NCBI GenBank assembly: GCA_947478785.1 | Contig: CANJXI010000030.1 | Coordinates: 1 to 39,784, forward strand | Direction of reading: 5' to 3' | DNA from: Caulobacteraceae bacterium | Lineage (GTDB): Bacteria > Pseudomonadota > Alphaproteobacteria > Caulobacterales > Caulobacteraceae | DNA: 39,784 bases | Notes under the pieces: model-generated | Told to the model about the DNA's origin: nothing | The model's input: the letters and a program-made list of their open reading frames with translations, nothing else | Database searches by the model: none | Position numbers and translations under genes: made by a program | Shown here: in pieces, positions 15,255 through 29,963 of the stretch | Layout: each line of letters begins with the position of its first letter | Position numbering within the stretch: the first letter of the stretch is position 1

Positions 15255-17081
15255 CTAGGCCGCTTCTGACGGCGGGTCGAATTCGGCGACCAGATGGCCG
15301 GGCGCGACCTCGTTCAAGGCCGGCGGCAGGACCGGCGCCATGGGGTCGATGGGCAGGCGCGAGGGCGCGAAGCGCCAAGCGGCGCGGGGGTCCATCGGGC
15401 TGGGCGGCTCGCCCACCAGCTTCACCCGCTCGCGCGTGCGCTCGATGGTGGGGTCCGGGATCGGCGCGGCGGAGAGGAGAGCCTTGGTGTAGGGGTGCTG
15501 CGGCGCCCGGTAGATCCGGTCGCGGTCGGCGGTCTCCACCACCCGGCCCATGTAGAGCACCAGCACCCTGTGGCTGATCTCGCGGACCACCGCCAGATCG
15601 TGGCTGATGAAGATCATCGCCAGGCCCATCTCCTTCTGGAGGTTGATCAGCAGGTCGATGATCTGCGCCCGGATCGAGACATCCAGCGCCGAGACCGCCT
15701 CGTCGCAGATCACCAGGCGGGGCTTGAGGATCATCGCGCGGGCGATGCCTACCCGCTGGTTCTGGCCGCCGGAAAGCTCGTGCGGATAGCGGTTGATCAG
15801 CGCCGGATCGAGCTCGGTCCGGGCCATCATCGCGGCGACCTCGCGGTCGCGGCCAGCGCGGTCGAGGTCGGGGCGGAAGATCTGCAATGGCTCGGCGATG
15901 GAATCGCCGATCGTCACCCTTGGGTCGAGGCTGGCCAGCGGGTCCTGGAAGACGATCTGCAGGTCCTTGCGCGCCGCCCGCAAGGCCTCGCGCTGGGCGT
16001 GAGTGATGTCGCGGCCCATCAGGGTCACGACCCCGCCGGTGGCCGGGATCAGGTTGAGGATGGCGCGCGCCAGCGTCGACTTGCCCGAGCCGCTCTCGCC
16101 GACCACGCCCAGGGTCTCGCCCTGGCGCACCTGGAAGGAGACCCCGTCCACCGCGCGGAGCTGGCGCGTTGGCGCCAGGAACCCGCCGCCGATCGGGAAC
16201 CAGACCTTGACGTCGGCGCCCGACACCACGACGGGCGCGTTCGCGGCCACCGGGTCCAGCGTCGGCCGCCCGCCCCGGCCTTCGCGGTCGAGCCTCGGGA
16301 TCGCCGCCAGCAGGGCCCTGGTATAGTCGGTCTGCGGATTGGCGAAGATGTCCTCGGCCGAACCCTCCTCCACATAGGCGCCGTCCTTCATCACGCAGAC
16401 CCGGTCGGCCAGCCGCGCGATGACCCCCATGTCGTGGGTGACCAGCACCATGGCCGCGCCGGTCTCGCGCTGCAGCTCGGCCATCAGGTCGAGGATCTCG
16501 GCCTGGACGGTGACGTCCAGCGCCGTGGTCGGCTCGTCGGCGATCAGCAGTTCCGGCCCGCCAGCCATGGCGGCGGCGATCATCACCCGCTGGCGCATCC
16601 CGCCGGAAAGCTCATGCGGATACTGGCGCAGGCGTTGCGCCGCGTCGGGAATGCGGACCTTCTCCAGCCACAGCCTGGCGTGCGCCATGGCCTCGCGGTC
16701 GCTCATCCCCTGGTGCAGGCGCAGCGGCTCGGCGATCTGTTCGCCGATGCGTACGTGCGGCGTCAGCGCGGTCAGCGGATCCTGGAAAATCATCGTCATC
16801 TTCGAGCCGCGGATGCGGTTGAGCTCGCGGGGCGTGAGCGTCAGGAGCTCGGTCCCCGAGAACTTCGCGGAACCCGTCGCCCGCCCGTTGCGGGCCAGCA
16901 GGCCCATCACCGCCATGAAGGTCTGGCTCTTGCCCGAGCCGCTCTCGCCGACCACGCCCAGGGTCTGGCCCCGCGGAATGGCCAGGGAGACGCCCCGGAC
17001 CGCCTGGATCACCCCGTCGTGCGTGTCGAAGTCGACCTTCAGGTCGTCGAGGGTCAGGACGGCGGGGACGGGTGCGGGCAA
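15255..17081 (-). CDS. Fused two-domain ATPase of a dipeptide/oligopeptide-type ABC transporter
   Basis: A 608-aa cytosolic protein with two complete ATPase domains in the DppD-DppF order. Domain 1 has Walker A GESGSGKS (45-52), signature LSGGM (158-162) and Walker B LLIADEP. Domain 2 has Walker A at 328-335, LSGGQ (436-440) and Walker B LVICDEA. The oligopeptide-type C-terminal extension [16 protein letters not shown] is present. The start is TTG at 17081 with GAGG upstream. No permease or binding-protein gene lies nearby, so its membrane partners must be encoded elsewhere. It heads the ABC-manC-threonine lyase-FKBP run. The start is close to the divergent HAD gene. Confidence 0.92.
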
Positions 17082-17170
17082 GGGCGACCTCGGGCCAACA
17101 GCTGGGCAAGGACGACCTTAGACCGCCAGTTGGACTTTTTGAAATCGCCGGGGCGGCTATAGTCGCCCTG

Positions 17171-17716
17171 GTGTCCGAAACCGCCGCACAATATCTGCGC
17201 CCCGCCCTCTTCCTCGACCGCGACGGGGTGCTGAACGAGGACCAGGGGTATGTCCACCGCTGGGAGGACTTCCGCTGGATCCCCGGCGCGAAGGCCAGCG
17301 TGGCGGCGTTCAACCGGGCGGGCTGGCTGGTGATCGTGGTGACCAACCAGTCAGGCGTCGGGCGCGGCTACTACACCGAGGCCGCCATGCACGCCCTGCA
17401 CGCGCGGATGAGCGAAGACCTGGCCAAGGTCGGCGGCCACGTTGACGCCTTCTACCATGCCCCGGACCACCCCGACGCCGCGCTCGACGCCTACCGCCAC
17501 CCCGATCCGCCCGACCGCAAGCCCAATCCCGGCATGATCCTGAAGGCGCTGGCCGACTGGCCCATCGACCGCGACCGCTCCCTGCTGATCGGCGACAAGT
17601 CCTCGGACCTGGAGGCGGCGCTGCGCGCAGGAATTCGCGGCGTGCTGTTCGAAGGCGGCGACCTGAAGGCGTTTTTGGAGGCGGAGGCCCTGTTCCCAAC
17701 CTCCCGCACGGCATGA
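17171..17716 (+). CDS. HAD-IIIA phosphatase, GmhB/HisB-N-like, without zinc cysteines
   Basis: A 181-aa cytosolic HAD phosphatase related to D,D-heptose 1,7-bisphosphate phosphatase (GmhB). Asp16 and Asp18 in FLDRDGVLNEDQGYV are the nucleophile and acid/base; TNQSGVGRGYY, RKPNPGMI and LIGDKSSDLEAA are the other HAD motifs. In GmhB a zinc loop with Cys-x-His and Cys-x-Cys precedes RKPxPGM; here that stretch (APDHPDAALDAYRHPDPPD) has no cysteine. The substrate may therefore differ. I chose GTG at 17171 (MSETAAQY); TATAGT at 17158-17163 could be a -10 box, making the transcript nearly leaderless. It overlaps the next gene by ATGA. Confidence 0.82.
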   Translation: MSETAAQYLRPALFLDRDGVLNEDQGYVHRWEDFRWIPGAKASVAAFNRAGWLVIVVTNQSGVGRGYYTEAAMHALHARMSEDLAKVGGHVDAFYHAPDHPDAALDAYRHPDPPDRKPNPGMILKALADWPIDRDRSLLIGDKSSDLEAALRAGIRGVLFEGGDLKAFLEAEALFPTSRTA

Positions 17717-19500
17717 GCGCTGACGCCGCGCCGACGGACGCGATCCACCAGGCCTATGCCCTGCTGCAGCAGAAGGCCCCAGTGCAAGACATCCTCGCCC
17801 TGGTGGCCCACATCGACTCGGGCCACGGGCAGTTTGCCCAGGCCCAGTATGTGCGCGGAATCTGTGCGGCCCGGCTGGGCGACGTCCAGCGGGCCAAGGC
17901 GCTCTACATCGACGCGATCGGGCGGGGGCAGGACGGCGCAGTCTGGTTGAACCTGGCCGGCGCCGCGGCGGCGCTGGGCATGCCCGACGACGCCGTGTCG
18001 ATGCTACTCGGCCTGTTGCAGCGCATGCCCACGCCGCAACTCTTTCCGTTCGCCCGGCAACTCCTTGGCGTCACGGGCTTCGCCGACAAGGCGCCCGATC
18101 CCGGGAAGGACCTGGCCTTCAGCAAGCTCGTGCTGCCAACCCTGGCGATGCTCCTGGAACGGCGCGAGATGGATGGCGCCATGGGTCTCGAGAGCTTGCT
18201 CTACGAATACTATGTGAAGCCCACCGAGACAGAGGCCCACTTCGCCTGGTGCATGGCGCAGATAGCGCCTCTGTTCACCGCCGCGGCGCACGCTTGGCGC
18301 GCTCAGCTGCCACCCCTGCCCCAGCCTGCGCTCGAGCCGCCCTACAGGATCGGCTTCTTCATCCACAACGCCACGATGCTGGCCCATATCGAAGTGCTCC
18401 TGAACACGCTGAAAGGCTACCGGAGGCTCGACGAGCAGCCCTTTGAGCCCACGGTCTACTGCTTCTCCGGCAAGAGTCCGGAGATGGAGCAGGCGCTCGC
18501 CAGGCTGGGGGTTCGGCTGGTGATGCTGAACGAGCGCTTTCCGGAGACGCGCGACTCCGCCTGGCGCCGCATGCTGCGCCTTCGCGAACTCCTCTCGGAG
18601 GAGCGCGTCCAGGAACTCGTCTGGGTCAGCCTGGTGACCATGCTGCCGCTGGCCTTCGGCCTGCGCCTTGCGCCCGTCCAGACCTGGTGGGCCATGAAGT
18701 ACCGCAACTTCTCGCACCAGGACATCGACGGCTATGTCAGCGGCAGCGCGCTCACCCACTTTGGGATGCTCGCCGGGCGCATGTGGCGCATGGGCATGCT
18801 CGGCGTCGATGACTGGTACGACCCCAGCCTGGAGGACGAGGCCGCGGCGCTGAGGGTTGAACTGAGGGGCCGGGTGGTGCTGGCGACCTTTGCCCGCGAG
18901 GAAAAGATGGGTGACCCCGCTTATCTGCAGGCCCTGACGGCGATCCTCACCGCCCATCCCACTGCGGTCTTCCTGTGGGCCGGCCGGACGGAGAAGCCGG
19001 AGGTGGTGCAAGCCTTCCGCGCCGCGGGTGTCCTCGACAGGACCCGGTTCATCGGCTGGGTGAACACGCGGCTCTACGCCCAGGTCCCTGACATCTTCCT
19101 AGACAGCTTCCCGTTCCCCTGCGGCTTCACGCTTTTCCAGGCGATGGCGGCGGGAAAGGCGGCGGTGCTCTATGACTCGCCGGAGGCCGCCCAGACGGGC
19201 CTGTGGAATTTCCTGAAACCGCTTGTCGACGACGGGCAGGGGACCGTCGAGGAGCGCGCCGAACTCCAGGCCTTCATGGGCGACGAAGCAAATACCCTTA
19301 TCGCCGTCGCGCGCACGCCGGACGACTACGTTCGCCACGTCGGACGCCTGATCGAGGATCCGAAAGCCCGCGCCGCCGCCGGCGAGGCGTCACGCCGCTT
19401 CATGGCGCGCTATTTGTCGGACCCATGCGCCATGGCCGCTTCCTATGCGCGCCACTTCGTCGAACTCATCGAGGAGCGCGGCTCCATCGAACGGGGGTGA
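17713..19500 (+). CDS. TPR-containing glycosyltransferase, SPINDLY/GT41-like
   Basis: A 595-aa protein. Residues ~10-130 look like degenerate tetratricopeptide helices (QAQYVRGICAARLGDVQRAKALY, WLNLAGAAAALGMPDDAV). The second half is a GT-B glycosyltransferase: YRIGFFIHNAT, a donor-site-like FLWAGRTEKPEV, then RFIGWVNTRLYAQVPDIFLD and SFPFPCGFTLFQAMAAGKAAV, which resembles the GT41 motif DIFLDTFPYxxxTTxxDAL. TPR plus GT-B is the layout of O-GlcNAc-transferase-like enzymes and of the Caulobacter flagellin glycosyltransferase FlmG, so a protein acceptor is a reasonable guess. It starts in the stop of the HAD gene (ATGA) and ends 12 nt from the convergent aldolase gene. Confidence 0.8.
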   Translation: MSADAAPTDAIHQAYALLQQKAPVQDILALVAHIDSGHGQFAQAQYVRGICAARLGDVQRAKALYIDAIGRGQDGAVWLNLAGAAAALGMPDDAVSMLLGLLQRMPTPQLFPFARQLLGVTGFADKAPDPGKDLAFSKLVLPTLAMLLERREMDGAMGLESLLYEYYVKPTETEAHFAWCMAQIAPLFTAAAHAWRAQLPPLPQPALEPPYRIGFFIHNATMLAHIEVLLNTLKGYRRLDEQPFEPTVYCFSGKSPEMEQALARLGVRLVMLNERFPETRDSAWRRMLRLRELLSEERVQELVWVSLVTMLPLAFGLRLAPVQTWWAMKYRNFSHQDIDGYVSGSALTHFGMLAGRMWRMGMLGVDDWYDPSLEDEAAALRVELRGRVVLATFAREEKMGDPAYLQALTAILTAHPTAVFLWAGRTEKPEVVQAFRAAGVLDRTRFIGWVNTRLYAQVPDIFLDSFPFPCGFTLFQAMAAGKAAVLYDSPEAAQTGLWNFLKPLVDDGQGTVEERAELQAFMGDEANTLIAVARTPDDYVRHVGRLIEDPKARAAAGEASRRFMARYLSDPCAMAASYARHFVELIEERGSIERG

Positions 19501-19512
19501 GCGTGCCTTGGC

Positions 19513-20451
19513 CTACCCGCCGGCGAAATCCGCGGTCAGGCTCCGGGGTCGCTCAAGATAGAGATCGCGGAAGACCACCTCGCGGCTGCGGCCGCCGGCC
19601 AGCAGCCGGGCAAGATGGCGCGAGTGGGTGCCGGTGAGACCCAGCGCCACATTCCAGTAGTCATAGGGCTGGCCGACGCGCCGCGAAAACTCCTCGGCCA
19701 GGGCGATGACCGCGGATATCCGATCCGGATCGTCCAGCGTCAGGAGACTGAGCAGGATCTCGGTCGGCGCATTGCCTCCGGACCGGCCGAAGCCGCCCAG
19801 CGTGCCGTCGATGAAGGCATAACCGAGTTCAGCGGCCTGCAGACAGTTCGGGATGGCCGATTGCAAGTTGTTGTGGCCATGGAAACCACGGGCCCCGGCC
19901 CAGTTGCCGTCGAAGTGGGTCAGCGCCGCCGCTGTGCGCGCGCCGTAGAGGCAGCCGGCGGAGTCGACGTAGTAGCAGCCCGCGGTCTCGTAGGCGGCCA
20001 GGCGTTCAAGCACGCCCTCGATCTCGTCCGGCGGCCAGATCGATGTCGCCATCAGGAACGGAAAGACTTCGACCCTTCGTCCACGCAGGACCTCCATCAC
20101 CTCCAGGCTCGCCTCGACCGTATTGTCCTGGATGCCGACACGGATGAACTGCGCACCGTCGGCCACGCACCGGCCGACTTCGTCCAGAGTCGCGTTGCCG
20201 GCGATCAGGAAGCAGCCGACCTTGCTCGCCCCCGCGCTCGAAAGCGCCGCCTCCAGGTATGCCCCGTCGCTCGCGCCGGCGGCCTTGCCATGGAGCCGCG
20301 CCCCGCCCAGGCCCAGCCCATGGCCGACCTCGATGTGCGAGACCCCGACCTCAGCCAAGCCCTTCGTGATCGTCCGGGTGGTGTCCAGGTCGAGCATGAA
20401 GTCGACCACATAACTCGAATCCCGAAGCGTGCAGTCGAATACTGTCGTCAT
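19513..20451 (-). CDS. HMGL-like (DRE-TIM) aldolase
   Basis: A 312-aa TIM-barrel protein of the HMG-CoA lyase / 4-hydroxy-2-oxovalerate aldolase superfamily. It begins FDCTLRDSSYVVDF, with the metal- and substrate-binding Arg10-Asp11, and has the metal pair His191-x-His193 in GFHGHNNLQSA. A Tyr replaces the catalytic His found in DmpG-type aldolases (LRDSSY versus LRDGSH), as in the aldolase-like proteins I recall from O-antigen and glycan clusters. It probably makes or cleaves a short keto- or hydroxy-acid, possibly an acyl ornament. Convergent with the TPR-GT gene; divergent from the oxygenase at 20605. Confidence 0.82.
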   Translation of the reverse strand: MTTVFDCTLRDSSYVVDFMLDLDTTRTITKGLAEVGVSHIEVGHGLGLGGARLHGKAAGASDGAYLEAALSSAGASKVGCFLIAGNATLDEVGRCVADGAQFIRVGIQDNTVEASLEVMEVLRGRRVEVFPFLMATSIWPPDEIEGVLERLAAYETAGCYYVDSAGCLYGARTAAALTHFDGNWAGARGFHGHNNLQSAIPNCLQAAELGYAFIDGTLGGFGRSGGNAPTEILLSLLTLDDPDRISAVIALAEEFSRRVGQPYDYWNVALGLTGTHSRHLARLLAGGRSREVVFRDLYLERPRSLTADFAGG

Positions 20452-20496
20452 GGGTCCTCAGGGAGAGGAAACACCCCGCGCCTCTCGAGACGGCGC

Positions 20497-20526
20497 TTGT
20501 AGGTCAATCTCAGGCCGGCACATAAT
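20497..20526 (+). promoter_or_regulatory. Candidate sigma-70-type promoter for the 20.6-25.8 kb operon
   Basis: TTGTAG (20497-20502) and CATAAT (20521-20526) are separated by 18 nt in the gap between the aldolase and oxygenase starts. It would drive a six-gene plus-strand run. Prediction by eye only. Confidence 0.3.
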
Positions 20527-20604
20527 GGATTCCTAACCCTCTACGCCTGCAATATGACGCATGGCTCCGCAGGTGTAGCGGGCGGATTACTCTGGACAGC
20601 GGCG

Positions 20605-21390
20605 ATGGATATGAACGCGGACCACGCTCGCCGAGGCGTCCACGAGATCGAAGCGCCGGGCGCCATTCTCCGCGACCAGGCGGCCTATGTCGGGATGGCG
20701 GAGATGTTGCGGCAGGGACAGGTCCTGGTCAGCCGCAACGTCCTGTCGGCCGAACTGACGCGGCGGATCACCCACTATCTCGCGGGGATCGGCCGATCGT
20801 CGCTCCCCAACTGGCGCCCGATCGAGCCGGGCTGTCCCAACTTCCACCGCCTGAACTGGAACGACGAGCGGGCCTATGTGCACGCGGCCTTCCACCAGTT
20901 CTCGTTCTTCCCCTGGAACCAGGACGTCTTCGGTCTCTTCGGGATGCTGGACGACGTGTTCCGGCTACGGAACAGGCTGTGCGGGGCCGGCGAGACGGCG
21001 TTCCTTTCCGGCGATCCCTCCGAGGGCGCCGTCGCGCGGTTCTCGGCGCAGTTCTATCCCCGCGGGGGCGGACACATGGCCGGCCACATTGATCCGGCCG
21101 GCGAGTATCAACTGGTCGTGCCGACGCTGGTCATGTCGGCGCATGGAGAGGATTTCACGGACGGCGGCCTCTGGGTCGAGCTTCCCGATGGCCTGCGTCT
21201 GCAGGTCGATCCGCTGGTGGGCCCAGGCGACGTCATCTGGTTCCATCCGCAACGGCCGCACGGCGTGCAGGCGGTCGATCCTGAGGCCACGCTCGACTGG
21301 ACCGCCTTCCGCGGTCGGTGGTCGGCGATCCTCGCGGTGAACGGCCTTCCCGGCAACGCCGCCCGCGCGGGTGTCGAGATCGGAGGCTAG
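20605..21390 (+). CDS. Probable Fe(II)/2-oxoglutarate-type oxygenase
   Basis: A 261-aa protein with a double-stranded beta-helix look. The likely iron triad is His161-x-Asp163 (GHIDPAGEYQ) and His219 (PQRPHGVQAV), preceded by SAQFYPRGGGHMAGH; a downstream Arg (FRGRWSAI) could hold 2-oxoglutarate. This suggests hydroxylation of a small molecule or sugar in the glycan pathway. The start is uncertain: ATG at 20605 fits the conserved region, and ATG at 20554 would add 17 residues; neither has a strong ribosome site. First gene of a tightly packed plus-strand operon. Confidence 0.68.
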   Translation: MDMNADHARRGVHEIEAPGAILRDQAAYVGMAEMLRQGQVLVSRNVLSAELTRRITHYLAGIGRSSLPNWRPIEPGCPNFHRLNWNDERAYVHAAFHQFSFFPWNQDVFGLFGMLDDVFRLRNRLCGAGETAFLSGDPSEGAVARFSAQFYPRGGGHMAGHIDPAGEYQLVVPTLVMSAHGEDFTDGGLWVELPDGLRLQVDPLVGPGDVIWFHPQRPHGVQAVDPEATLDWTAFRGRWSAILAVNGLPGNAARAGVEIGG

Positions 21391-21401
21391 GGCCGCCCGT
21401 G

Positions 21402-22331
21402 ATGCTCAGCCTCGACCTCCCCAAGGCGACCCTGGTCGCCCAGCCAGTTCCCGGCGTCCCCTGGATGGCCGGCGGGCTAGGCGCGTTCTTTCCCCGCCTC
21501 ACGAGCGACGGGCATCTGGAGCTGCTGGTGAGCGGCCGCGACGCGGGGGGCGAAAGCCGCATCGGGGCCATGACCTTCGAATGGGGCGACCCGCCCCGCC
21601 TGCTGCACGTCTCCGAACCGCTGCTGGACCGGGGCGCGCTGGGCGCCTTCGACATGAACGGCGCCGGCTACCCCTGGCTCGTCCAGCACGAGGGCGCACA
21701 ACGGATGTTCTATGTCGGCTGGATGCGCCTGGGCGGCGGCGTCCCGTTCCGCAACCAGCTCGGCCTGGCCGAGCGCCTGGGCCACAACGGCCCCTTCCGC
21801 CGGATGTCACAGGCGAGTTGGTTTCCGGCGACGGACCGCGAACCGATCGGGACGGGATCCTGCGCCGTCGATCGTCTGCCCAGCGGGCTGTGGCGCATGC
21901 TGTACGTGAACTTCGTGGGCTGGGAGCGTCAGAGCGATAGCGTCAGCCACCGCTACAACGTGCGGCAGGCGTTCTCCGACGACGGGCTGACCTTCGACCG
22001 CGAGACGTCGAGCGTCGCCATCGAACTCGAGGGCGACGAGGTCGCCATCGGCACGCCGGCGCCGCGCTGGGTAGGCGGCGGCCAAGAGATCCTGTTCACC
22101 GCGCGCGTCCGCGACTATCGCCTCTATTCCGTCCCCGTGACCGACGATGGGGAGATCCTCAGAAGCCGCACCCGCCTGGACATCCCCGCCGGAAGCTGGG
22201 ACGGGGAGATGCAGGGCTATCCCAAACTGTTGCATCGCGCCGGGCAGGACTGGCTTTTCTACTGCGGCGATGGCTATGGACGGGCGGGAATTGGCATGGT
22301 CCCCCTGCCTGCGCGCCTCTTGGCGAAGTGA
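21402..22331 (+). CDS. Unknown protein, probable five-bladed beta-propeller (glycosidase-like fold)
   Basis: I do not recognise a named family. The 309-aa protein has repeating strand-turn units of the kind seen in GH32/43/130-like propellers: LVSGRDAGGESRIGAMTF, MFYVGWMRLGGG, WRMLYVNFVGWE, ILFTARVRDYRLYSVPV, DWLFYCGDGYGRAGIG. Conserved-looking acids (DMNGAGYPW, DGEMQGYP) could act on a carbohydrate. It has no signal peptide, so it is probably cytosolic and may process a sugar or nucleotide sugar. A GTG at 21399 directly before the ATG is an alternative start; GGAGG lies at 21382-21386. Its TGA overlaps a possible GTG start of the next gene. Confidence 0.62.
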   Translation: MLSLDLPKATLVAQPVPGVPWMAGGLGAFFPRLTSDGHLELLVSGRDAGGESRIGAMTFEWGDPPRLLHVSEPLLDRGALGAFDMNGAGYPWLVQHEGAQRMFYVGWMRLGGGVPFRNQLGLAERLGHNGPFRRMSQASWFPATDREPIGTGSCAVDRLPSGLWRMLYVNFVGWERQSDSVSHRYNVRQAFSDDGLTFDRETSSVAIELEGDEVAIGTPAPRWVGGGQEILFTARVRDYRLYSVPVTDDGEILRSRTRLDIPAGSWDGEMQGYPKLLHRAGQDWLFYCGDGYGRAGIGMVPLPARLLAK

Positions 22332-22345
22332 TCGAGCGGCTAGGG

Positions 22346-23152
22346 ATGAACGACGAAGTTCCGCTCTTCGACAGCCACGGCGGCGCAACCCTCGACGGCG
22401 CGTGGCTCGACGGCCGCCCGGGCCAGACCTTCGCGGACCTTCGCCAGGCCATGACGGAAGCCGGCTTCATCGGCGGCCTCATCCAGGGCCTGCCCGGTGT
22501 CGGAGGCTATGATCATCGGGAATTCGCCGAGGCGACGCTCGCCTGCCAACGGCTCTGGCCGGTCGCGGCGTGGGACGGTTCCGAGGCCGAAACCACGGAC
22601 ACCCAAATGGCCGCCCTGAAGGCGATGGGCTTCGTCGGCGTGCACGCCCATCCCCGCGCCGCCGGCGTGGGGCCGGACGAGCCGAGGTTCCACGCCCTCC
22701 TGCGTTCGGCCGCCGCGGCGGGCCTTCCCGTGTTCTACTGCACCTACCAGTTCGCCGACGTCGACGCGGGCCTGCCGGTCGATCCGCTTCCCCACCTGGC
22801 GGCGGCGCTGCGCCAGGCGCCCGACGCCCGCCTAGTGCTCCTGCACGGCGGCACCGTCGAGGTGCTGCGCTATGCCGAGTTCACCCGCGCCAATCCGCGC
22901 GTGCTGCTCGACCTGTCCTTCACTCTGATGCGCTACGCCGGCGCCTCGATCGACGCGGATCTCGGATATATCTTCCGCACGCTGGACCGCCGCGTCTGCA
23001 TCGGCACCGACGCCCCGGAATATTCACCCGCCGACGTGCGGGCCCGGTTCGAGGCGCTGACGGCGGGACTGCCCCTGAACAAGCGCCTCAACATCGCCGG
23101 CCGCAGCCTGACGCGGTTCCTGGGCCTCGACCTCTACCCGGCGGGAGAGTGA
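22346..23152 (+). CDS. Amidohydrolase-family (TIM-barrel) protein with reduced metal motif
   Basis: A 268-aa protein resembling amidohydrolase_2/TatD-type barrels: an N-terminal FDSHGG, then GFVGVHAHPRA, LVLLHGGTVEVL, VLLDLSFTL and the late strand CIGTDAPEYSP with the typical Asp. The first metal motif is DSHGG instead of the usual DxHxH, so one metal ligand is missing and metal binding may differ. The role is probably hydrolysis or decarboxylation of a pathway intermediate. ATG at 22346 was chosen; a GTG at 22328, overlapping the preceding stop, is possible and would couple translation. The next gene begins 2 nt after this stop. Confidence 0.72.
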   Translation: MNDEVPLFDSHGGATLDGAWLDGRPGQTFADLRQAMTEAGFIGGLIQGLPGVGGYDHREFAEATLACQRLWPVAAWDGSEAETTDTQMAALKAMGFVGVHAHPRAAGVGPDEPRFHALLRSAAAAGLPVFYCTYQFADVDAGLPVDPLPHLAAALRQAPDARLVLLHGGTVEVLRYAEFTRANPRVLLDLSFTLMRYAGASIDADLGYIFRTLDRRVCIGTDAPEYSPADVRARFEALTAGLPLNKRLNIAGRSLTRFLGLDLYPAGE

Positions 23153-23153
23153 C

Positions 23154-23819
23154 GTGGACCCGCAGGAGAAGGACGCCAACCGCCAGCGCTACGAGGTCCG
23201 CCACGCCGAGTTCGGCTACGACGAGCGCACGCTCGGCTGGACCAAGGGACGCCACAAACTGCGCTACGAAATCCTTCTGTCATCGTGGCCTGAGGCGACG
23301 CAGTCCGTGCTCGATGTCGGCTGTGGCTTCGGCGACATGGCGGCGTACTGCCACGAAAGCGGGCGCGGCCACTGGCGTTATACCGGCATCGACATCGTGC
23401 CGGCCCTGATCGCTGAGGGTCACGCTCACCATCCGGGCGTCGATCTGCGGCTGCATGATATGGACGACGCCGGGTTGCCGGACGGATACGATGTGATCGT
23501 CGCGTCCGGGGTCTTTTCGCATCGCCTGAAGGACAACATGGCCTTCATCGAACGCGCCTTCGAGCGGTTCGCAGAAGCCGCAGGGATCGGTTTCGCGGCC
23601 AACTTCATGTCGCCCGCCGCCGACGTCCGATACGATAACCTTTTCTATCCCGACCCCGGCGCGATCTTCGATATCGCCCGGCGGTACAGCAAACGCATCA
23701 CCCTACGCCACGACTACATGCCCTTCGAATACACGGTGCAGGTCCATGTGGACGACGCCTTCAGCTCGGATTCCGTGGTGTTCGAGCCCTACGAGGGCTT
23801 GATCGACCGCGCCCGGTGA
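23154..23819 (+). CDS. Class I SAM-dependent methyltransferase
   Basis: A 221-aa protein with a clear AdoMet-binding motif I, VLDVGCGFGDMA, at about residues 52-63, then YTGIDIVPALI (acidic strand 2 residue) and YDVIVASGVFSH. The N-terminus (QRYEVRHAEFGYDERTLGW) and C-terminus (FYPDPGAIFDIARR, MPFEYTVQVHVDD) resemble methyltransferases of glycan clusters. It likely methylates a sugar or its acyl group. The start is GTG at 23154 with GGGAG about 6 nt upstream. The stop overlaps the next start (GTGA). Confidence 0.85.
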   Translation: MDPQEKDANRQRYEVRHAEFGYDERTLGWTKGRHKLRYEILLSSWPEATQSVLDVGCGFGDMAAYCHESGRGHWRYTGIDIVPALIAEGHAHHPGVDLRLHDMDDAGLPDGYDVIVASGVFSHRLKDNMAFIERAFERFAEAAGIGFAANFMSPAADVRYDNLFYPDPGAIFDIARRYSKRITLRHDYMPFEYTVQVHVDDAFSSDSVVFEPYEGLIDRAR

Positions 23820-25051
23820 CCGGCCGCCCCACCGTGATGGTGCTTGGCGCCGGCCGACCCATCGTCGGCTCGGTGAAGGCGCTGAAGGAATCGGGTTTCC
23901 GCTGCATCGTCGTCGACGATCTGCCACGGCCGTTCGCCTTCGACGTCGCCGATCTTGGCGTCGCCTGCGCCATCGACGACGTGGACGGGCTCGAACAGAT
24001 CCTTGACCAGGTGGGTGGCGTGGACGGGGCCGTCGCGACCAACGAAGCCGGCGTCTCCTCGATCGCCGCGCTCGCCGCGCGTGGACGAATTCGCGGTGGC
24101 GCCCAGGCGACCGCCGCCCGGCTCGCCAGCAAGCTCCGCCAGCGGCAGGAGATCAATAGCCGCTGCCCTGCCTGGGAAGTGCCGTTCCGGCTCGTCGAAA
24201 GCGTCCAGGACGTCATCGCCGCCGGATCTGCGTTGGGTTGGCCGGTGATCCTGAAACCTGACGTCAGCGGCGGCGGCTCACGGGGCGTCAGTCTGGTCCA
24301 AACACCAGACGACGCTGAAAACGCGCTGGCCTTCGCGCGCGACGCGGCCGCGGGTTCGGCGGTGCTGGCGGAGCGCGCCCTCGACGGCCCGCAGTTCAGC
24401 GCCGAGGTGCTGGTCGCCGAGGGCCGGACGCAGGTGGTCGCCATTGGCCGCAAGCGAAAATCCAGGGCGCCCTACCGCGTGGATCTCGCCGTGATCTATC
24501 CCGGCCTCGAAGGCGACCTGGCCGCCGCGGCGGAGCGTATGCTGACGGATGTCGTCCAGGCCGTGGGCCTGACGGACTCGGCGGCCCACGTGGAGTTCGC
24601 CCTAACCGCCGATGGCCCACGGCCGATCGAGGTGGGCGGGCGCGTCGGCGGCGGCTTCACGTCGATGCTGGCCGCCCACGCCAGCGGCTGCGACCCCTTC
24701 GTTCAGGCCGCGCGACTGGCCTGCGGCCTGCGGGTTCAATGGCCCGATCCGACAGCCAGCTCGAAGGGCGCCGTCTATGGCTTCCTCACCTACCCGCCGG
24801 GGCAGGCGGTCGGTCATCTCATCCCGAGTCACATAGTGGACGACCCGCGCGTGCTCGACGCCTTCCTGTTCCTGCCGGCCGACGGCGTGGTGAAGCCACT
24901 TCAATGGACCTCGCAGCGCATCGGGATGATGGCGGTGACCGGCGACACGGCGGCCGACGCGCTCGCCTATTTCGACACGGTGTCGCGGGGTCTTACCGTG
25001 AAGTACGCTGACGGCCAGGCGCGCGGGCCGCTGACCGACAACGCGGAATAG
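23816..25051 (+). CDS. ATP-grasp carboxylate-amine ligase family protein
   Basis: A 411-aa protein. An N-terminal Rossmann-like preATP-grasp domain (VMVLGAGRPIVGSVKAL) is followed by the ATP-grasp core: WPVILKPDVSGGGSRGVSLV (Lys near residue 147 and the glycine loop), the hinge VLAERALDGPQFSAEVLV, and the metal site AHVEFALTADGPRPIEVGGRVGGG near 260-280. Such enzymes activate a carboxylate as acyl phosphate and join it to an amine. In this cluster the amine may be an amino sugar made by the aminotransferase at 27671. The start is GTG at 23816, overlapping the methyltransferase stop. Confidence 0.85.
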   Translation: MTGRPTVMVLGAGRPIVGSVKALKESGFRCIVVDDLPRPFAFDVADLGVACAIDDVDGLEQILDQVGGVDGAVATNEAGVSSIAALAARGRIRGGAQATAARLASKLRQRQEINSRCPAWEVPFRLVESVQDVIAAGSALGWPVILKPDVSGGGSRGVSLVQTPDDAENALAFARDAAAGSAVLAERALDGPQFSAEVLVAEGRTQVVAIGRKRKSRAPYRVDLAVIYPGLEGDLAAAAERMLTDVVQAVGLTDSAAHVEFALTADGPRPIEVGGRVGGGFTSMLAAHASGCDPFVQAARLACGLRVQWPDPTASSKGAVYGFLTYPPGQAVGHLIPSHIVDDPRVLDAFLFLPADGVVKPLQWTSQRIGMMAVTGDTAADALAYFDTVSRGLTVKYADGQARGPLTDNAE

Positions 25052-25069
25052 ACCGGCGCAGGAGTACAT

Positions 25070-25819
25070 ATGGCCGTCACCGCCAACGCATTGCCGCTGT
25101 TTGGGCGCGTCCTGCAGGTCGTGCGCAAACAGCTGCGCGCCGCAGTCGCACCGGGCGCTCCGATAAAACTCCTCTCGCTGGGCTATATCGACTTCGTGGT
25201 GTCGAAGGACGACGTGGAGCGTGTCTTCGGAGCCCAGGTGGCCGAGGTGGTCGGGATCAGGGCGGACTCGCAAACGATCGCCGCATGGCACCGTAGCCAG
25301 TCCAGCGTCATCGATGCCGACGCGCTGTTCCGCGCCCTGGGTTTCGAGCCGCATTACCTGGACATCGCCGTCATCCGCGGCGGCGAGATCGTCCAGGACC
25401 TCAACGAGCCCCTCGCGCCCGAACTCGTGGGCGCGTTCGACGTGGTGATCGATTCAGGGACGCTGGAACACTGTTTCAACATCGCCCAGGCCGTCGCCAA
25501 CGTGGCCATGGCGGTGCGGGTTGGCGGGATCGTCCACCACGGCAATCCTATGGTGATGATCAACCATGGCTTCTACAATTTCTCGCCGGCCTTCTATCAC
25601 GACTTCTACCGGGCCAACGGCTTCGAGATGCTGGACATGTACGCTGTGGAACAGCCGCCTGGCGAGGTCCGCCTGACCCGCCTGGATGGCGTCCAGCGCA
25701 TCAAATTCCGCGATCCCATCGAGAAGATCATCCAGGTCATCGCGCGCAAGATCGAAGACACCCCGACCAGATGGCCGACCCAGACGAAATATGTCCAGAA
25801 CCCGAACCTATCGGCCTAG
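25070..25819 (+). CDS. Methyltransferase-like protein of the WPTQTKY-x2-NPNL family (copy A)
   Basis: A 249-aa protein of unknown function. The fold looks like a class I methyltransferase: QDLNEPLAPELVGAFDVVIDSGTLEHCFN matches the strand 4 / post-motif region of SAM enzymes. The glycine-rich motif I is instead replaced by LLSLGYIDFVVS, so AdoMet binding is uncertain. Distinctive blocks are NHGFYNFSPAFYHDFY and the terminal WPTQTKYVQNPNLSA. A paralogue at 34765 shares all of these. The start is ATG at 25070 with GGAG 5 nt upstream. Last gene of the plus-strand operon; its stop overlaps the convergent PhyH gene by 12 nt. Confidence 0.78.
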   Translation: MAVTANALPLFGRVLQVVRKQLRAAVAPGAPIKLLSLGYIDFVVSKDDVERVFGAQVAEVVGIRADSQTIAAWHRSQSSVIDADALFRALGFEPHYLDIAVIRGGEIVQDLNEPLAPELVGAFDVVIDSGTLEHCFNIAQAVANVAMAVRVGGIVHHGNPMVMINHGFYNFSPAFYHDFYRANGFEMLDMYAVEQPPGEVRLTRLDGVQRIKFRDPIEKIIQVIARKIEDTPTRWPTQTKYVQNPNLSA

Positions 25820-26584
25820 GGATTTGGCCTTCTCGGCGTTCTCATAGAATTGTTCGATCGATTCCGGCGTCTGCTTCGCATAGCCCAGGAAGGTGCGGAG
25901 GTTGGCGCTGACTTGCGCCTCCACCTCGGGCCCCAGGAGCCGGGGATAGTCGAACCGCTGCTTCATGTAGCCGCGCACCGCGTAGGTGCTGAGCGCGTAG
26001 CGCGTGGCCGAGGTCCGGTTGTCGCCGGCGCGATGATAGCAGTGCGGATCCCAGATCAGCGCCGCGCGGGCCGGACGATCTACCCTCACCGCGTATCGCT
26101 CGAAACTCTCGGCGCTTGGGGGCGTCGAGTTTCGATGCGAGCCCGGCAGGTACCAGCTCGCCCCGTTCTCGGCGGTGAAGTCATCGATGGCCAGTGTCAT
26201 CTGCAGGCCTGTGCAGATGTTCGGCAGCCACCGGCCGGAATCCACATGGACGCTCTGCGCCGGCACGGCGTCGTTGGGCGCGAGCAGCGTCGAGGAGTAG
26301 GCGTAGAGGACGCAGTCCGCCCCCAGGAAATGGCGGTAGAACCGCAGCATCTCCGGATGCTCGAGCAACTCCAGGAAGAGGCCGCCGTAGGACGCCAGTT
26401 CCATGACATGGTTCCTGGCCTTGCCGGGGAAGCGTCCGAACCTGGCTTGATCCGCCGCCAGCGCCTCGGTCAGCGCCGACTTCAGTGCGGTCGCCATCTC
26501 CGGGGTGATGAAATCGGGCACAATCGTGAACCCGAAGGCCTCGATCTCGTAGTCGTGTCTGGCGTGGTCGATCAACGTCTTCAC
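25808..26584 (-). CDS. Phytanoyl-CoA dioxygenase (PhyH) family oxygenase
   Basis: A 258-aa Fe(II)/2-oxoglutarate dioxygenase. The iron ligands are His113-x-Asp115 in SVHVDSGRWLPN and His184 in DPHCYHRAGDN; the following RTSATRYALS supplies the 2-oxoglutarate Arg. The N-terminus FGFTIVPDFI is typical of the family. The predicted role is hydroxylation of a sugar, lipid or acyl intermediate. The only useful start is GTG at 26584, with no good ribosome site, 37 nt after the upstream methyltransferase stop, suggesting cotranscription. Second non-heme iron oxygenase in this cluster. Confidence 0.85.
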   Translation of the reverse strand: MKTLIDHARHDYEIEAFGFTIVPDFITPEMATALKSALTEALAADQARFGRFPGKARNHVMELASYGGLFLELLEHPEMLRFYRHFLGADCVLYAYSSTLLAPNDAVPAQSVHVDSGRWLPNICTGLQMTLAIDDFTAENGASWYLPGSHRNSTPPSAESFERYAVRVDRPARAALIWDPHCYHRAGDNRTSATRYALSTYAVRGYMKQRFDYPRLLGPEVEAQVSANLRTFLGYAKQTPESIEQFYENAEKAKSLGR

Positions 26585-26621
26585 CGTGGAGTGACTTGTC
26601 GTTCCCGCAATAACACGCCGC

Positions 26622-27641
26622 TCAGGCGCGCGCGTAGACGCCGGTGACCTTGTATCCCATGCCCAGGGCATGCAGGCGGTCGATGTTCAGGTCGTCCGGC
26701 TCGCTCAGGGCGGCGCCGGAGATCTCGTGGGCGACCCGCCGGATCGAATCCCACTCGAACGTCCGGATCTTGTCCATCTCGCTGATGACCGTCTCGGTCC
26801 CCAGCGCCCGGAAGCCGGCGCTGGCCAGCATGGCGTCCAGGGTCTTCGGCGTGAAGTAGGACCAGTGGCCAATATCGAACGTCGAGTTGGAAGCCCCCTC
26901 GAGGCGCACGATAAGGCTGTCGAAATTCGGCGCCTGGATGAAGAGACGGCCATCCGCGGGCAGGCGCTCGGCGACCTGATTCAGGAAATCGACAGGCCGC
27001 TCGGCGTGCTCGAGTATATCCAGCAGGCAGATGGCGTCGGGCTTCAAATCCGGCGGCAGGACATCGGGAAAGAAGCCCACCGTCACCTCATGGCCCTTGC
27101 CACGCGCCACCGCCGCGAGGTCGGGATTGGCCTCGATGCCGACGGTCTCCCAGCCGGCGTCGCGGGCGGCGTCCAGAAGCACGCCCGTGCTGCAGCCGAC
27201 ATCGAGCAACAGTCCGCGTCGCGGGGAGAACGAGCCTAGCCGCGCTACGAAATAGGCGGCCTTCCGCGCCTCCAGCATCGCGTAGACGGGGTTGGCCCGG
27301 ATGTTCTGGTGGAAGCGTGGGACCTCGGAATTCACATACCGGTCCCGGTCCGCTTCCTGTGTCAGGACATTCTGTGAATAGGTCATGTCGCAGACGTTGC
27401 AGGTGACGATGCGCAACCCCTTGGTGAAATAGCGCAGGCGGGAGGCCGAGCGGTCCGCGCCGCACAGGACGCAGTCGCGGTCGATGGCAATGGCGCCGGC
27501 CAGCGTGCCGTCCGATTCGAGAAGCTGCGTGGCCATCTCGCCTTCGGCCCGCCGCAGTTCGACATAATCCAGTGTCATGGCCGCCCGCGCGCCCGGCGTC
27601 AGGGCGGCGTCGAAGTCATCCTTGTGCAGGGCGGCGGTCAT
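26622..27641 (-). CDS. Zinc-ribbon class I SAM methyltransferase
   Basis: A 339-aa protein. An N-terminal zinc-ribbon-like motif (Cys57-x2-Cys60 ... Cys81-x2-Cys84) precedes an AdoMet-binding core with motif I LLLDVGCSTGVLL (~145-157), the acidic ETVGIEANP and AICLLDILEHAERP. This two-part layout is common in C- and O-methyltransferases acting on sugars. The start is ATG at 27641; a second Met at residue 22 is possible. It sits 29 nt downstream of the aminotransferase gene, on the same strand, and upstream of the PhyH gene, so the three probably form one operon. Confidence 0.85.
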   Translation of the reverse strand: MTAALHKDDFDAALTPGARAAMTLDYVELRRAEGEMATQLLESDGTLAGAIAIDRDCVLCGADRSASRLRYFTKGLRIVTCNVCDMTYSQNVLTQEADRDRYVNSEVPRFHQNIRANPVYAMLEARKAAYFVARLGSFSPRRGLLLDVGCSTGVLLDAARDAGWETVGIEANPDLAAVARGKGHEVTVGFFPDVLPPDLKPDAICLLDILEHAERPVDFLNQVAERLPADGRLFIQAPNFDSLIVRLEGASNSTFDIGHWSYFTPKTLDAMLASAGFRALGTETVISEMDKIRTFEWDSIRRVAHEISGAALSEPDDLNIDRLHALGMGYKVTGVYARA

Positions 27642-27670
27642 GGCGTGCGGCGGTCGGCTCCCAGGCCACG

Positions 27671-28834
27671 CTATGCCACGGCGCGTCGCACCACGTCGAT
27701 AACCTGGGCCACTGCCTCCGTCTTCATCTCCGACCCGAGCGGCAATCGCAGAAGTCCCTCGCCGGCGCGATCGGTGTTGGTCATCTCGCCGACCCAGCGG
27801 CCATAGCGCCGGCCCGCGGGCGCCGAATGCAGCGGCACATAGTGTGACACGCCCTGCACGCCCTCCCGCCGCATCGCCTGCAGCACGGCGGTGCGGCGCT
27901 CGGCCGAGGGCAGGCGCAGATGGTAGATGTGAGCGTTGTGGGCGCAGTCCTGCGGGATTTGCGGGGTGAGGGCCACGCCGGCTTCCTGCAGGCCGCCGAG
28001 CGACGCTTGATACTCGTCCCACAGATCCAGGCGCAGCCTGGTAATCTCCAGCGAGCGTTCCAGTTGCGCGCCCAGGAAGGCCGCGTTCAGTTCGCTGGGC
28101 AGGAATGACGAACCCACATCGACCCAGGTGTATTTGTCGATTTCGCCGCGGAAGAAGGCGGCGCGGTTAGTGCCCTTCTCCCGGATGATCTCAGCCCTTT
28201 CGCCCCATGTCTGCTGGTCGCAGACAAAGACGCCGCCCTCGCCGCAGTGAATGTTCTTGGTCTCATGGAAACTGAAGGCGGCCATGTCGCCCAACGCGCC
28301 GGCCGGCCGGCCGCGGTAGCGTGCGTGCAGGGCTTGCGCGGCGTCCTCGATCACGATCAGGCCATGAGTCTTCGCGAGCGCCATGATTGGATCCATGTCA
28401 CACGGCACGCCCGCGTAATGGACGACCATGATCGCCCGCGTCCGTTCGGTGAGCGCCGGCCGGATGAGGTCCGCATCTATGTTCAGGGTGTCGGCGCGGA
28501 CGTCGACGAAAACCGGCGTTGCGCCCCTCAGGACGACGGCGTTGGCCGTCGACGAGAAGGTGAAGGAGGGCATTACGACCTCGTCGCCCGGCTGGAGTTC
28601 AGCCAGGAGGGCCGCCAGTTCGAGGGCGGCCGTACCCGAAGGCGTGAGCAGGGCGTGCGCGACGCCCAGCGCGCCGCGAAGGTAGGCCTCGGCGCCGCGC
28701 GCCGCCAGATTGTCTCCGGACAACCTGCGCCGCCCGACGGCCTCGCGAAGCGCCTCCAGTTCGCCCCCGGTTCGTAAGGGCTCGACGAACGGGATCAGGA
28801 TCGGTGGCGACACGGCGTTTTCGGGCGAAGTCAT
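27671..28834 (-). CDS. rffA: DegT/DnrJ aminotransferase, dTDP-4-amino-4,6-dideoxygalactose transaminase (RffA/WecE-like)
   Basis: PLP enzyme that aminates dTDP-4-keto-6-deoxyglucose at C4. The 387-aa protein has the PLP Lys193 in FSFHETKNIHCGEGG, a motif close to WecE/RffA, plus TPSGTAALELAA, DEVVMPSFTFSSTANA, VIEDAAQALHARYRG and the C-terminal GVQGVSHYVPLHSAP. The last two and the length match the RffA subgroup better than perosamine or ArnB enzymes; exact product stereochemistry is not provable from sequence. The start is ATG at 28834. It leads the aminotransferase-methyltransferase-PhyH minus-strand run and likely shares its substrate with rfbC. Confidence 0.88.
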   Translation of the reverse strand: MTSPENAVSPPILIPFVEPLRTGGELEALREAVGRRRLSGDNLAARGAEAYLRGALGVAHALLTPSGTAALELAALLAELQPGDEVVMPSFTFSSTANAVVLRGATPVFVDVRADTLNIDADLIRPALTERTRAIMVVHYAGVPCDMDPIMALAKTHGLIVIEDAAQALHARYRGRPAGALGDMAAFSFHETKNIHCGEGGVFVCDQQTWGERAEIIREKGTNRAAFFRGEIDKYTWVDVGSSFLPSELNAAFLGAQLERSLEITRLRLDLWDEYQASLGGLQEAGVALTPQIPQDCAHNAHIYHLRLPSAERRTAVLQAMRREGVQGVSHYVPLHSAPAGRRYGRWVGEMTNTDRAGEGLLRLPLGSEMKTEAVAQVIDVVRRAVA

Positions 28835-29042
28835 GCGGTGTCTGTGGAATATGCCACCTCAAACGGCAAGCCGCCTCGACACCCCGCCGTTCGTGTCGGA
28901 CCCGGGGACGCGCGCATCCCTCGCCGACCGAATGCCCGCCCCGGAATGCGCCTTAAGCCTCTTTCGGAATGGGCGGTTAACCGGCAGGCTTCCATGGACG
29001 GGGCGAGCTGATGGAATTCCTTGCGGCGGAGGCCTAGCCGGC

Positions 29043-29959
<917 letters not shown>

Positions 29960-29963
<4 letters not shown>

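What the first reader, a model, noticed from the sequence alone, without database searches (positions are those of the whole stretch)
17171..28834. Accessory cluster that may build and attach an unusual N-acylated amino sugar
In 11.7 kb there are a 4-keto-6-deoxyhexose aminotransferase, an ATP-grasp amide ligase, an HMGL-like aldolase, two Fe(II)/2OG-type oxygenases, two SAM methyltransferases, an amidohydrolase, a beta-propeller protein, a HAD phosphatase and a TPR-glycosyltransferase. There is no Wzx/Wzy and only one glycosyltransferase. A coherent reading is: aminotransferase makes dTDP-4-amino-4,6-dideoxyhexose; aldolase and oxygenases make a hydroxy-acid; ATP-grasp joins them; methyltransferases finish; the TPR-GT transfers the sugar, perhaps to a protein such as flagellin. 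Anthrose-type sugars of Bacillus show that such acyl amino sugars exist, but this gene set is not one I recognise as described.
Basis: inference. Interest (0 to 1): 0.75.

Follow-up and report, generated by a model that had tools for sequence, protein, structure and literature searches.

The report
Flagellin-sugar island with amide ligase
An 11-gene DNA island, most of whose genes also sit inside flagellar gene clusters of distantly related bacteria, probably builds an amino sugar, caps it with a custom-made acid, and attaches it to flagellin or another surface protein; the exact sugar is unknown.

Summary
The cluster is real, with corrected borders. It is an 11-gene island (17713-28834; inserted stretch about 17.70-29.04 kb), absent from the same site in 12 of 12 same-genus genomes fetched. 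The HAD phosphatase is a backbone gene.

Eight island genes recur together on a closed Pseudoroseomonas cervicalis plasmid: ATP-grasp, oxygenase, amidohydrolase, propeller, aldolase, WecE, methyltransferase, TPR-glycosyltransferase. Next to them lie FliI, a 'WPTQTKY' homologue, flagellar export/basal-body genes and flagellin. Roseomonas sp. 18066 and P. deserti carry parts of the set beside flagellin or fliI.

Best reading: WecE (over curated cut-offs) makes dTDP-Fuc4N; the ATP-grasp ligase N-acylates it with a cassette-made acid; the OGT-fold TPR-transferase puts it on a protein. Activities, acid, order of steps and the target here are inferred. Against: this host also encodes pseudaminate synthase; two Acetobacteraceae loci hold an extra hexapeptide-type transferase; one relative has WecE/WPTQTKY/TPR-GT beside an RTX protein. 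ATP-grasp genes in flagellin-sugar loci have precedents (C. difficile type B, Shewanella sfm), so: new variant of a known kind.

The parts
17713..19500 (+). TPR + GT-B protein glycosyltransferase (TPRGT), 595 aa
19513..20451 (-). HMGL-like (4-hydroxy-2-oxovalerate aldolase-type) aldolase
   Evidence: PF00682 57.8 bits; 4-hydroxy-2-oxovalerate aldolase models, below cut-off; solved relatives 8ih7, 1nvm; homologues in L040 and L087, 36-37%
20554..21390 (+). Putative Fe(II)/2OG-type oxygenase (OX1)
   Evidence: conserved H-x-D...H and R in three clusters; 50-51% identity in L040/L087
21402..22331 (+). Five-bladed beta-propeller protein (BPROP), GH130/GH43-like fold; no obvious signal peptide (read by eye)
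22328..23152 (+). Amidohydrolase-2 family protein (AMH)
   Evidence: PF04909 46.8 bits; 48-50% identity in L040/L087
23154..23819 (+). SAM methyltransferase MT1
   Evidence: PF13649 46.3 bits; 49% identity in L040, no match in L087
23816..25051 (+). ATP-grasp carboxylate-amine ligase with LAL_C2 domain (ATPG)
   Evidence: PF13535, PF18603; best solved relatives are L-amino-acid ligases; 43-44% identity in L040, L041, L087
25070..25819 (+). 'WPTQTKY' methyltransferase-like protein (WPTQ)
   Evidence: Methyltransf_12 E 6e-4, below cut-off; homologue beside fliI on pL11-D (34%) and beside WecE in G537 (38%, motif WPMQTKY)
25808..26671 (-). Phytanoyl-CoA dioxygenase-family oxygenase (PHYH)
   Evidence: PF05721 70.6 bits; no match in the seven Acetobacteraceae stretches compared
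26622..27641 (-). SAM methyltransferase MT3 with N-terminal Cys pairs
   Evidence: PF13489 74.1 bits; next to WecE in L087 and L101, beside TPRGT in L087, L101 and L102
27671..28834 (-). WecE-type dTDP-4-keto-6-deoxyhexose 4-aminotransferase
   Evidence: passes TIGR02379 and PRK11706 cut-offs; PDB 4piw E 9.5e-115; 48-49% identity in L087, L101
17171..17716 (+). HAD phosphatase (GmhB-like): backbone gene at the left border, not part of the island
   Evidence: present at this site in 12 of 12 same-genus genomes fetched

Best explanation
The island is a horizontally acquired protein O-glycosylation cassette. WecE converts dTDP-4-keto-6-deoxyglucose (made by the host's Rml enzymes) into dTDP-4-amino-4,6-dideoxy-D-galactose (dTDP-Fuc4N). 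The aldolase, oxygenase(s), amidohydrolase and methyltransferase(s) make a small hydroxylated, possibly methylated carboxylic acid. The ATP-grasp enzyme activates that acid as acyl-phosphate and joins it to the 4-amino group, in place of the CoA- or ACP-dependent acyltransferase used elsewhere. The OGT-like TPR glycosyltransferase picks the target protein with its TPR half and transfers the finished sugar to Ser/Thr in the cytoplasm. In Acetobacteraceae the target is most likely flagellin; here flagellin is the first candidate. Shown: gene content, co-occurrence, flagellar context in relatives, predicted folds of two proteins, empty site. Inferred: enzyme activities, acid, order of steps, target.
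Against: No activity is shown. Host flagellins lie on another contig, and the host also encodes a PseI (499 bits, cut-off 340), so its flagellins may already carry pseudaminic acid. Between fliI and TPRGT, P. deserti has a hexapeptide-type transferase (Hexapep), and pL11-D has a homologue there that runs across the record start (64-73% identity in two pieces): another possible acyl or acetyl transferase, without a match in this window. In G537 the WecE-WPTQ-WbqC-TPRGT set lies beside a 788-aa RTX-repeat protein, and none of 7 flagellar queries matched in 59.7 kb at E 1e-4. In R. 18066 the two halves are on separate contigs and WecE is followed by a WbsX/GT2 protein, so the glycan may be longer than one sugar. 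TPRGT identity across loci is only 29-33%. AMH has lost part of the usual metal motif (HGG for HxH, canonical motif recalled). PHYH has no counterpart, and MT1 only one, in the loci compared. The role of BPROP is unexplained.
Confidence: 0.57

Rival explanations
1. Same chemistry, different protein: the TPR-GT decorates another exported surface protein (RTX adhesin or S-layer type) in this host, and flagellin only in Acetobacteraceae.
For: In G537 the WecE/WPTQ/WbqC/TPRGT set lies next to an RTX-repeat protein with 23 HemolysinCabind stretches, and no flagellar query matched nearby. The host has PseI for a possible separate flagellin sugar. No flagellar gene was recognised among the flanking genes of this window that I scanned, which is a part of them.
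Against: No exported target gene was recognised in or next to the island here. The three Acetobacteraceae with cassette genes, and R. marmotae, are all in flagellar context.
Confidence: 0.3
2. The island makes a diffusible small molecule (a peptide-like metabolite built by the L-amino-acid-ligase-type ATP-grasp and tailored by oxygenases and methyltransferases), and WecE/TPR-GT are bystanders.
For: The best solved relatives of the ATP-grasp protein are L-amino-acid ligases.
Against: WecE, MT3 and TPR-GT travel with the cassette in pL11-D; no exporter or carrier protein was recognised among the island genes; the flagellar context recurs.
Confidence: 0.06
3. The sugar goes onto lipopolysaccharide or another polysaccharide through host glycosyltransferases.
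For: WecE is best known for enterobacterial common antigen (recalled). Of 8 distant propeller homologues in own-family genomes (26-33% identity), 5 have a WecE-like match within the 4-20 kb fetched; in plasmids two of three looked at lie among polysaccharide genes (the third, does not). ATP-grasp hits from the class search lie near a WecE-like and an MT3-like match in 2 of the 7 loci that I extended (L082, L084) and next to an HMGL match in one (L079). ATP-grasp amino-acyl ligases also occur in sugar operons that one paper assigns to surface polysaccharide (PMC4000134, passages).
Against: No Wzx, Wzy or lipid-linked step recognised in the island; its only glycosyltransferase has an OGT-type fold.
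Confidence: 0.09
4. WecE and TPR-GT act without the acylating cassette: the ATP-grasp group modifies something else, and the sugar is plain Fuc4N or is acylated by another enzyme (a host acetyltransferase; in Acetobacteraceae the hexapeptide-type transferase beside TPRGT).
For: G537 and R. marmotae have TPRGT without the ATP-grasp cassette in the stretches held. A hexapeptide-type transferase lies between fliI and TPRGT in P. deserti and pL11-D.
Against: This window has no match to that transferase. Where the cassette is missing, another acyl-type gene sits beside TPRGT: WbqC in G537, a GNAT-domain protein in R. marmotae. The ATP-grasp gene overlaps MT1 by 4 bases here and so looks like part of one transcription unit with the cassette.
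Confidence: 0.18

Closest known systems
Clostridium difficile type B flagellin glycan locus (GT1-GT3, CDR20291_0244-0247); passages of PMC5207246 seen
   Same: Flagellin locus with an ATP-grasp (PF13535) protein, CDR20291_0245, needed for an amide-bearing terminal sugar, plus a dTDP-keto-sugar aminotransferase (FdtB-like) and rml-like genes nearby.
   Different: There the aminotransferase is of 3-amino type, with FemAB-like and ornithine-cyclodeaminase-like proteins and several stepwise GTs; no aldolase, amidohydrolase, oxygenases or TPR-OGT is mentioned in the passages seen.
Shewanella oneidensis sfmABCDE; section 5 and passages of PMC3765264 seen
   Same: Flagellin-modification operon with a SAM methyltransferase and an ATP-grasp_4 protein (SO_3265).
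   Different: Contains a NeuB-domain and a TPP enzyme (putative nonulosonic acid); no WecE, aldolase or TPR-GT among its five genes.
Clostridium acetobutylicum CA_C2186-2196 type sugar operons; passages of PMC4000134 seen
   Same: An 'ATP-grasp amino acyl ligase' among glycosyltransferases, methyltransferases and nucleotide-sugar enzymes; acyl transfer to an amino sugar is discussed there.
   Different: Built around an N-acetylneuraminate-synthase-like protein and a peptidase-like protein; assigned there to surface polysaccharide rather than protein.
Pseudomonas syringae viosamine island (vioA, M, T, S, B, R, acp); passages of PMC3927599 seen
   Same: dTDP-4-amino-4,6-dideoxyhexose made by an aminotransferase, N-acylated, methylated and placed on flagellin glycan.
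   Different: Acyl group built on ACP (VioS, VioR, ACP) and moved by VioB; sugar added to a rhamnose glycan by a 1,173-aa transferase. Here an ATP-grasp ligase and an aldolase cassette stand in that place.
Caulobacter FlmG flagellin O-glycosyltransferase; passages of PMC7591256 seen
   Same: N-terminal TPR plus C-terminal GT-B, 596 aa against 595 aa; cytoplasmic flagellin O-glycosylation.
   Different: FlmG adds pseudaminic acid. TPRGT found no full-length relative in 19 other genomes of its genus and order, only one 66-residue TPR-region match.
OGT / SPINDLY (GT41-type) protein glycosyltransferases
   Different: No GT41 Pfam family matched at E 0.01; donor expected to be a dTDP-sugar, not UDP-GlcNAc or GDP-Fuc (inference).

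Membership tests
WecE (dTDP-4-keto-6-deoxyglucose 4-aminotransferase) | Score over curated WecE cut-offs | tested here: met
   TIGR02379 495.6 vs 434.85; PRK11706 508.3 vs 375
WecE (dTDP-4-keto-6-deoxyglucose 4-aminotransferase) | Product is the galacto (Fuc4N) epimer | not testable with these tools
   needs enzyme assay
LAL-type ATP-grasp ligase | ATP-grasp domain, LAL_C2 domain and conserved core positions | tested here: met
   PF13535 46.9 and PF18603 31.8 bits, both over cut-off; K147, G153-G154, R156-V158, H258, E260, P270-E272, R276 invariant in the alignment of 28 sequences, own included; that these are the catalytic ones is recalled
LAL-type ATP-grasp ligase | Uses a nucleotide amino sugar as amine acceptor | not testable with these tools
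   inferred from context only
GT41 (OGT/SPINDLY) | TPR plus GT-B fold of OGT type | tested here: met
GT41 (OGT/SPINDLY) | Sequence match to a GT41 family model | tested here: not met
   Pfam scan lists only Glyco_trans_1_4, Glycos_transf_1 and TPR models at E 0.01, all below cut-off
FlmG flagellin O-glycosyltransferase | Orthology to Caulobacter FlmG | tested here: inconclusive
   no full-length hit in 19 related genomes, but I did not confirm that those genomes hold FlmG
Viosamine-island type (ACP/CoA route) | VioB-type acyltransferase, KAS III, ACP and ketoreductase in the locus | tested here: not met
   none among the island genes; note that two Acetobacteraceae loci hold a hexapeptide-type transferase
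C. difficile type B-like locus | ATP-grasp plus sugar aminotransferase in a flagellin-modification locus | tested here: met
   in pL11-D; in this window the flagellin is elsewhere
C. difficile type B-like locus | FemAB-like and ornithine cyclodeaminase-like partners | tested here: not met
   no such match among the island genes
GH130/GH43-type propeller enzymes (BPROP) | Five-bladed propeller fold | tested here: met
GH130/GH43-type propeller enzymes (BPROP) | Pfam glycosidase family match and catalytic residues | tested here: inconclusive
   no Pfam match at E 0.01; catalytic residues not mapped onto a template

The most novel reading that the evidence does not exclude
A modular protein O-glycosylation system: a shared chassis (WecE, the WPTQTKY protein and an OGT-fold TPR transferase for dTDP-amino sugars) carries exchangeable acyl-loading modules. 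These are an ATP-grasp/aldolase/oxygenase/amidohydrolase/propeller cassette (this island and Acetobacteraceae), WbqC (G537) or a GNAT-domain protein beside the TPR transferase (R. marmotae). The chassis is targeted to flagellin or to an RTX protein. The ATP-grasp cassette would be a CoA- and ACP-independent route to N-acylated sugar nucleotides with an undescribed acyl group.
Probability: 0.33. Interest if true: 0.75.

Novelty: new variant of a known kind. Interest (0 to 1): 0.55.

Why it matters
If right, it adds a carrier-free, ATP-grasp route for loading custom acids onto flagellin-type amino sugars, with a dedicated protein O-glycosyltransferase of OGT fold whose donor would be a dTDP-sugar. 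It gives a closed reference locus (eight cassette genes plus the WPTQTKY homologue on pL11-D) in a named species, on which donor, acyl group and target can be tested directly, and it offers functions for proteins that the record or Pfam leaves as hypothetical or unmatched (propeller, WPTQTKY, OX1). It also suggests that surface-protein decoration can be swapped by horizontal transfer of small cassettes.

Tried and rejected
HAD as a pathway phosphatase: rejected, backbone gene.

Window-type ATP-grasp elsewhere in family or class: none seen. One search reports 36 of 40 relatives with a match, but apart from the own gene these are generic ATP-grasp hits (38 bits or less); 10 of 390 family genomes at E 1e-15, own gene 669 bits, next 73; 21 of 385 genomes of the class, next best 119 bits. 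(TPR-GT): 2 of 385, own and G537. In some searches at most 3-4 candidates per genome were scored, so misses are possible.

Extending class-level ATP-grasp hits: I extended 7 of the 20 non-own hits. L079 has an HMGL match (29%) next to it; L082 and L084 have WecE-like (32%) and MT3-like (25-27%) matches; four have nothing else. No full cassette.

Propeller family (9 of 199 family genomes, own included): the 8 others are 26-33% identical. In the 4-20 kb fetched none has an ATPG, AMH, HMGL or TPRGT match at E 1e-4, but 5 have a WecE-like, 4 a PHYH-like, 2 an OX1-like and 1 an MT3-like match.

Mobile-element signs: no tRNA in the window, no telling repeats at the borders, no sigma-70-like promoter in 17000-29200.

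OX1 against solved structures: two hits that look spurious. AMH: no solved relative by sequence. NeuB family in the two Roseomonas-type genomes: one hit each (142 bits), not decisive.

Literature: answered searches found no paper; one listed two papers that look unrelated; 48 one (PMC4000134, passages seen); 46 seven, 49 twenty, 87 five and 88 one. Of these I looked inside PMC7591256, PMC3927599, PMC3765264, PMC5207246 and PMC4000134 (passages; one section of PMC3765264); the others were seen in the listing only. None of what I saw describes this gene set.

The contigs themselves were not seen.

Full report

Borders. I searched 40 same-genus genomes for the neighbouring DNA ligase (33 matches at E 1e-80, own included) and fetched the site from the 12 best-scoring others. 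All 12 have the HAD gene there, and none of the 11 island genes matches in the stretch at E 1e-5. In three of them the order is ManC-ABC-HAD-ABC transporter-permease-ligase, with 56-59 bases between HAD and the ABC gene. Nucleotide homology on the left ends at window 17.64-17.70 kb and on the right resumes at 29.04-29.07 kb. The island is thus an insertion of about 11.3 kb, and HAD is not part of it. The stretch 17171-28834 has 67.4% G+C against 70% in both flanks. In two of the 12 genomes 4.1 and 4.6 kb of other DNA separate HAD and ligase, so the site is variable.

Who else has it. An ATP-grasp alignment (A1) found two relatives in the species-genome collection, Roseomonas sp. 18066 (L040) and Pseudoroseomonas deserti (L041). 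L040 carries aldolase-propeller-amidohydrolase-MT1-OX1-ATP-grasp in a row, followed by genes that include flbT, flaF and flagellin. L041 begins inside the ATP-grasp gene and continues into the flagellin operon. TPR-GT, MT3 and WecE of R. 18066 lie on another contig, followed by a WbsX/GT2 protein. In P. deserti the TPR-GT and MT3 lie near fliI (87% to the pL11-D FliI), with a hexapeptide-type transferase between fliI and TPR-GT.

The decisive record is plasmid pL11-D of P. cervicalis (circular, complete). ATP-grasp, OX1, amidohydrolase, propeller, aldolase, WecE, MT3 and TPR-GT fill 118947-128230. Across the record start follow a hexapeptide-type transferase (unlisted in the gene table, found in two pieces), fliI, the WPTQTKY homologue, flgG, flgC, fliE, fliQ, flhA, fliR, flhB and fliL, and after two other genes flbT, flaF and flagellin (homology). 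In tblastn with six of the 11 island proteins against 72,556 plasmids, this record is listed first for five and has the higher bit score of two for the sixth, TPR-GT; OX1 matched 2 records, the amidohydrolase 1, TPR-GT 2.

Two related loci vary the theme. A R. marmotae plasmid has a TPR-GT (29%) inside a flagellar cluster, followed by a GNAT-domain protein and a methyltransferase, with no match to the other island proteins in the 37 kb held. An unnamed alphaproteobacterium of another family (G537) has WecE (47%), WPTQTKY (38%, motif WPMQTKY), WbqC and TPR-GT (30%), beside an RTX-repeat protein; none of 7 flagellar queries matched within 59.7 kb. So the target need not be flagellin everywhere.

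Metagenome proteins support linkage indirectly: 7 pairs of ATP-grasp, TPR-GT or propeller relatives share the same longest-contig length, for example P0004 and P0064 at 1,835,818 bases (from, a part of the hits). This is inference from lengths.

Against this reading. The host encodes a pseudaminate synthase (499 bits, cut-off 340), and its flagellins lie on another contig, so flagellin may already carry another sugar. Two Acetobacteraceae loci hold a hexapeptide-type transferase beside TPR-GT that could acylate the sugar there; this window has no match to it. The TPR-GT is conserved at only 29-33% between loci. PhyH has no counterpart in the loci compared and MT1 was found in only one. The role of the propeller is unexplained. 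The amidohydrolase lacks the second His of the usual HxH (canonical motif recalled).

Precedent. ATP-grasp proteins in sugar loci are known: C. difficile CDR20291_0245 is needed for the terminal sulfonated peptidylamido sugar of flagellin, in a locus with an FdtB-like aminotransferase (passages of PMC5207246); Shewanella SO_3265 belongs to the sfm flagellin operon (PMC3765264); and an 'ATP-grasp amino acyl ligase' lies in a C. acetobutylicum sugar operon (passages of PMC4000134). N-acylated 4-amino sugars on flagellin are known from the P. syringae viosamine island, made by an ACP route (PMC3927599). I found no description of the present gene set in what I saw of the library (most listed papers seen in the listing only). 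Hence: new variant of a known kind.

Noticed in passing
window 17171-17716 and 29036-32948; L125-L136: The spot between the HAD gene and the DNA-ligase gene is variable in the genus: nearly empty, an ABC transporter pair, or 4-5 kb of other genes (in one genome what reads by eye like a sigma factor with a regulator).
   Followed up: partly
G000 contig C98 (L118:10352-11401): The host genome also encodes a pseudaminic acid synthase over its curated cut-off, so a second surface-sugar pathway may exist.
   Followed up: partly
G000 contig C117 (L108), both ends: The same short peptide-coding stretch (MRGALRERRSYRRGATPPPGTRP) appears at both contig ends, once running into a flagellin frame; it looks like an assembly or adaptor artefact.
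   Followed up: no
L139:6355-10735 (genome G537): WecE, WPTQTKY, WbqC and TPR-GT lie beside a 788-aa RTX-repeat protein: a likely smaller relative of the system with a non-flagellar target.
   Followed up: partly
L123:17527-21283 (Roseomonas marmotae plasmid p1318-2): A TPR-GT homologue inside a plasmid flagellar cluster, followed by a GNAT-domain protein and a methyltransferase.
   Followed up: partly
L087:14-457 and L122:3-323 (pL11-D, across the record start); L102:2349-3149: A hexapeptide-type transferase between fliI and TPR-GT in pL11-D and P. deserti, unlisted in the pL11-D gene table, with no match in the window.
   Followed up: partly
L079 (genome G733): A distant ATP-grasp match (29%) next to an HMGL-aldolase match (29%) in another alphaproteobacterial family: perhaps a remote relative of the acid-making pair.
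   Followed up: no
window 35510-36532: Ligase-associated DNA damage response exonuclease near the DNA ligase at 31317-32948: looks like an ordinary ligase-associated set.
   Followed up: no
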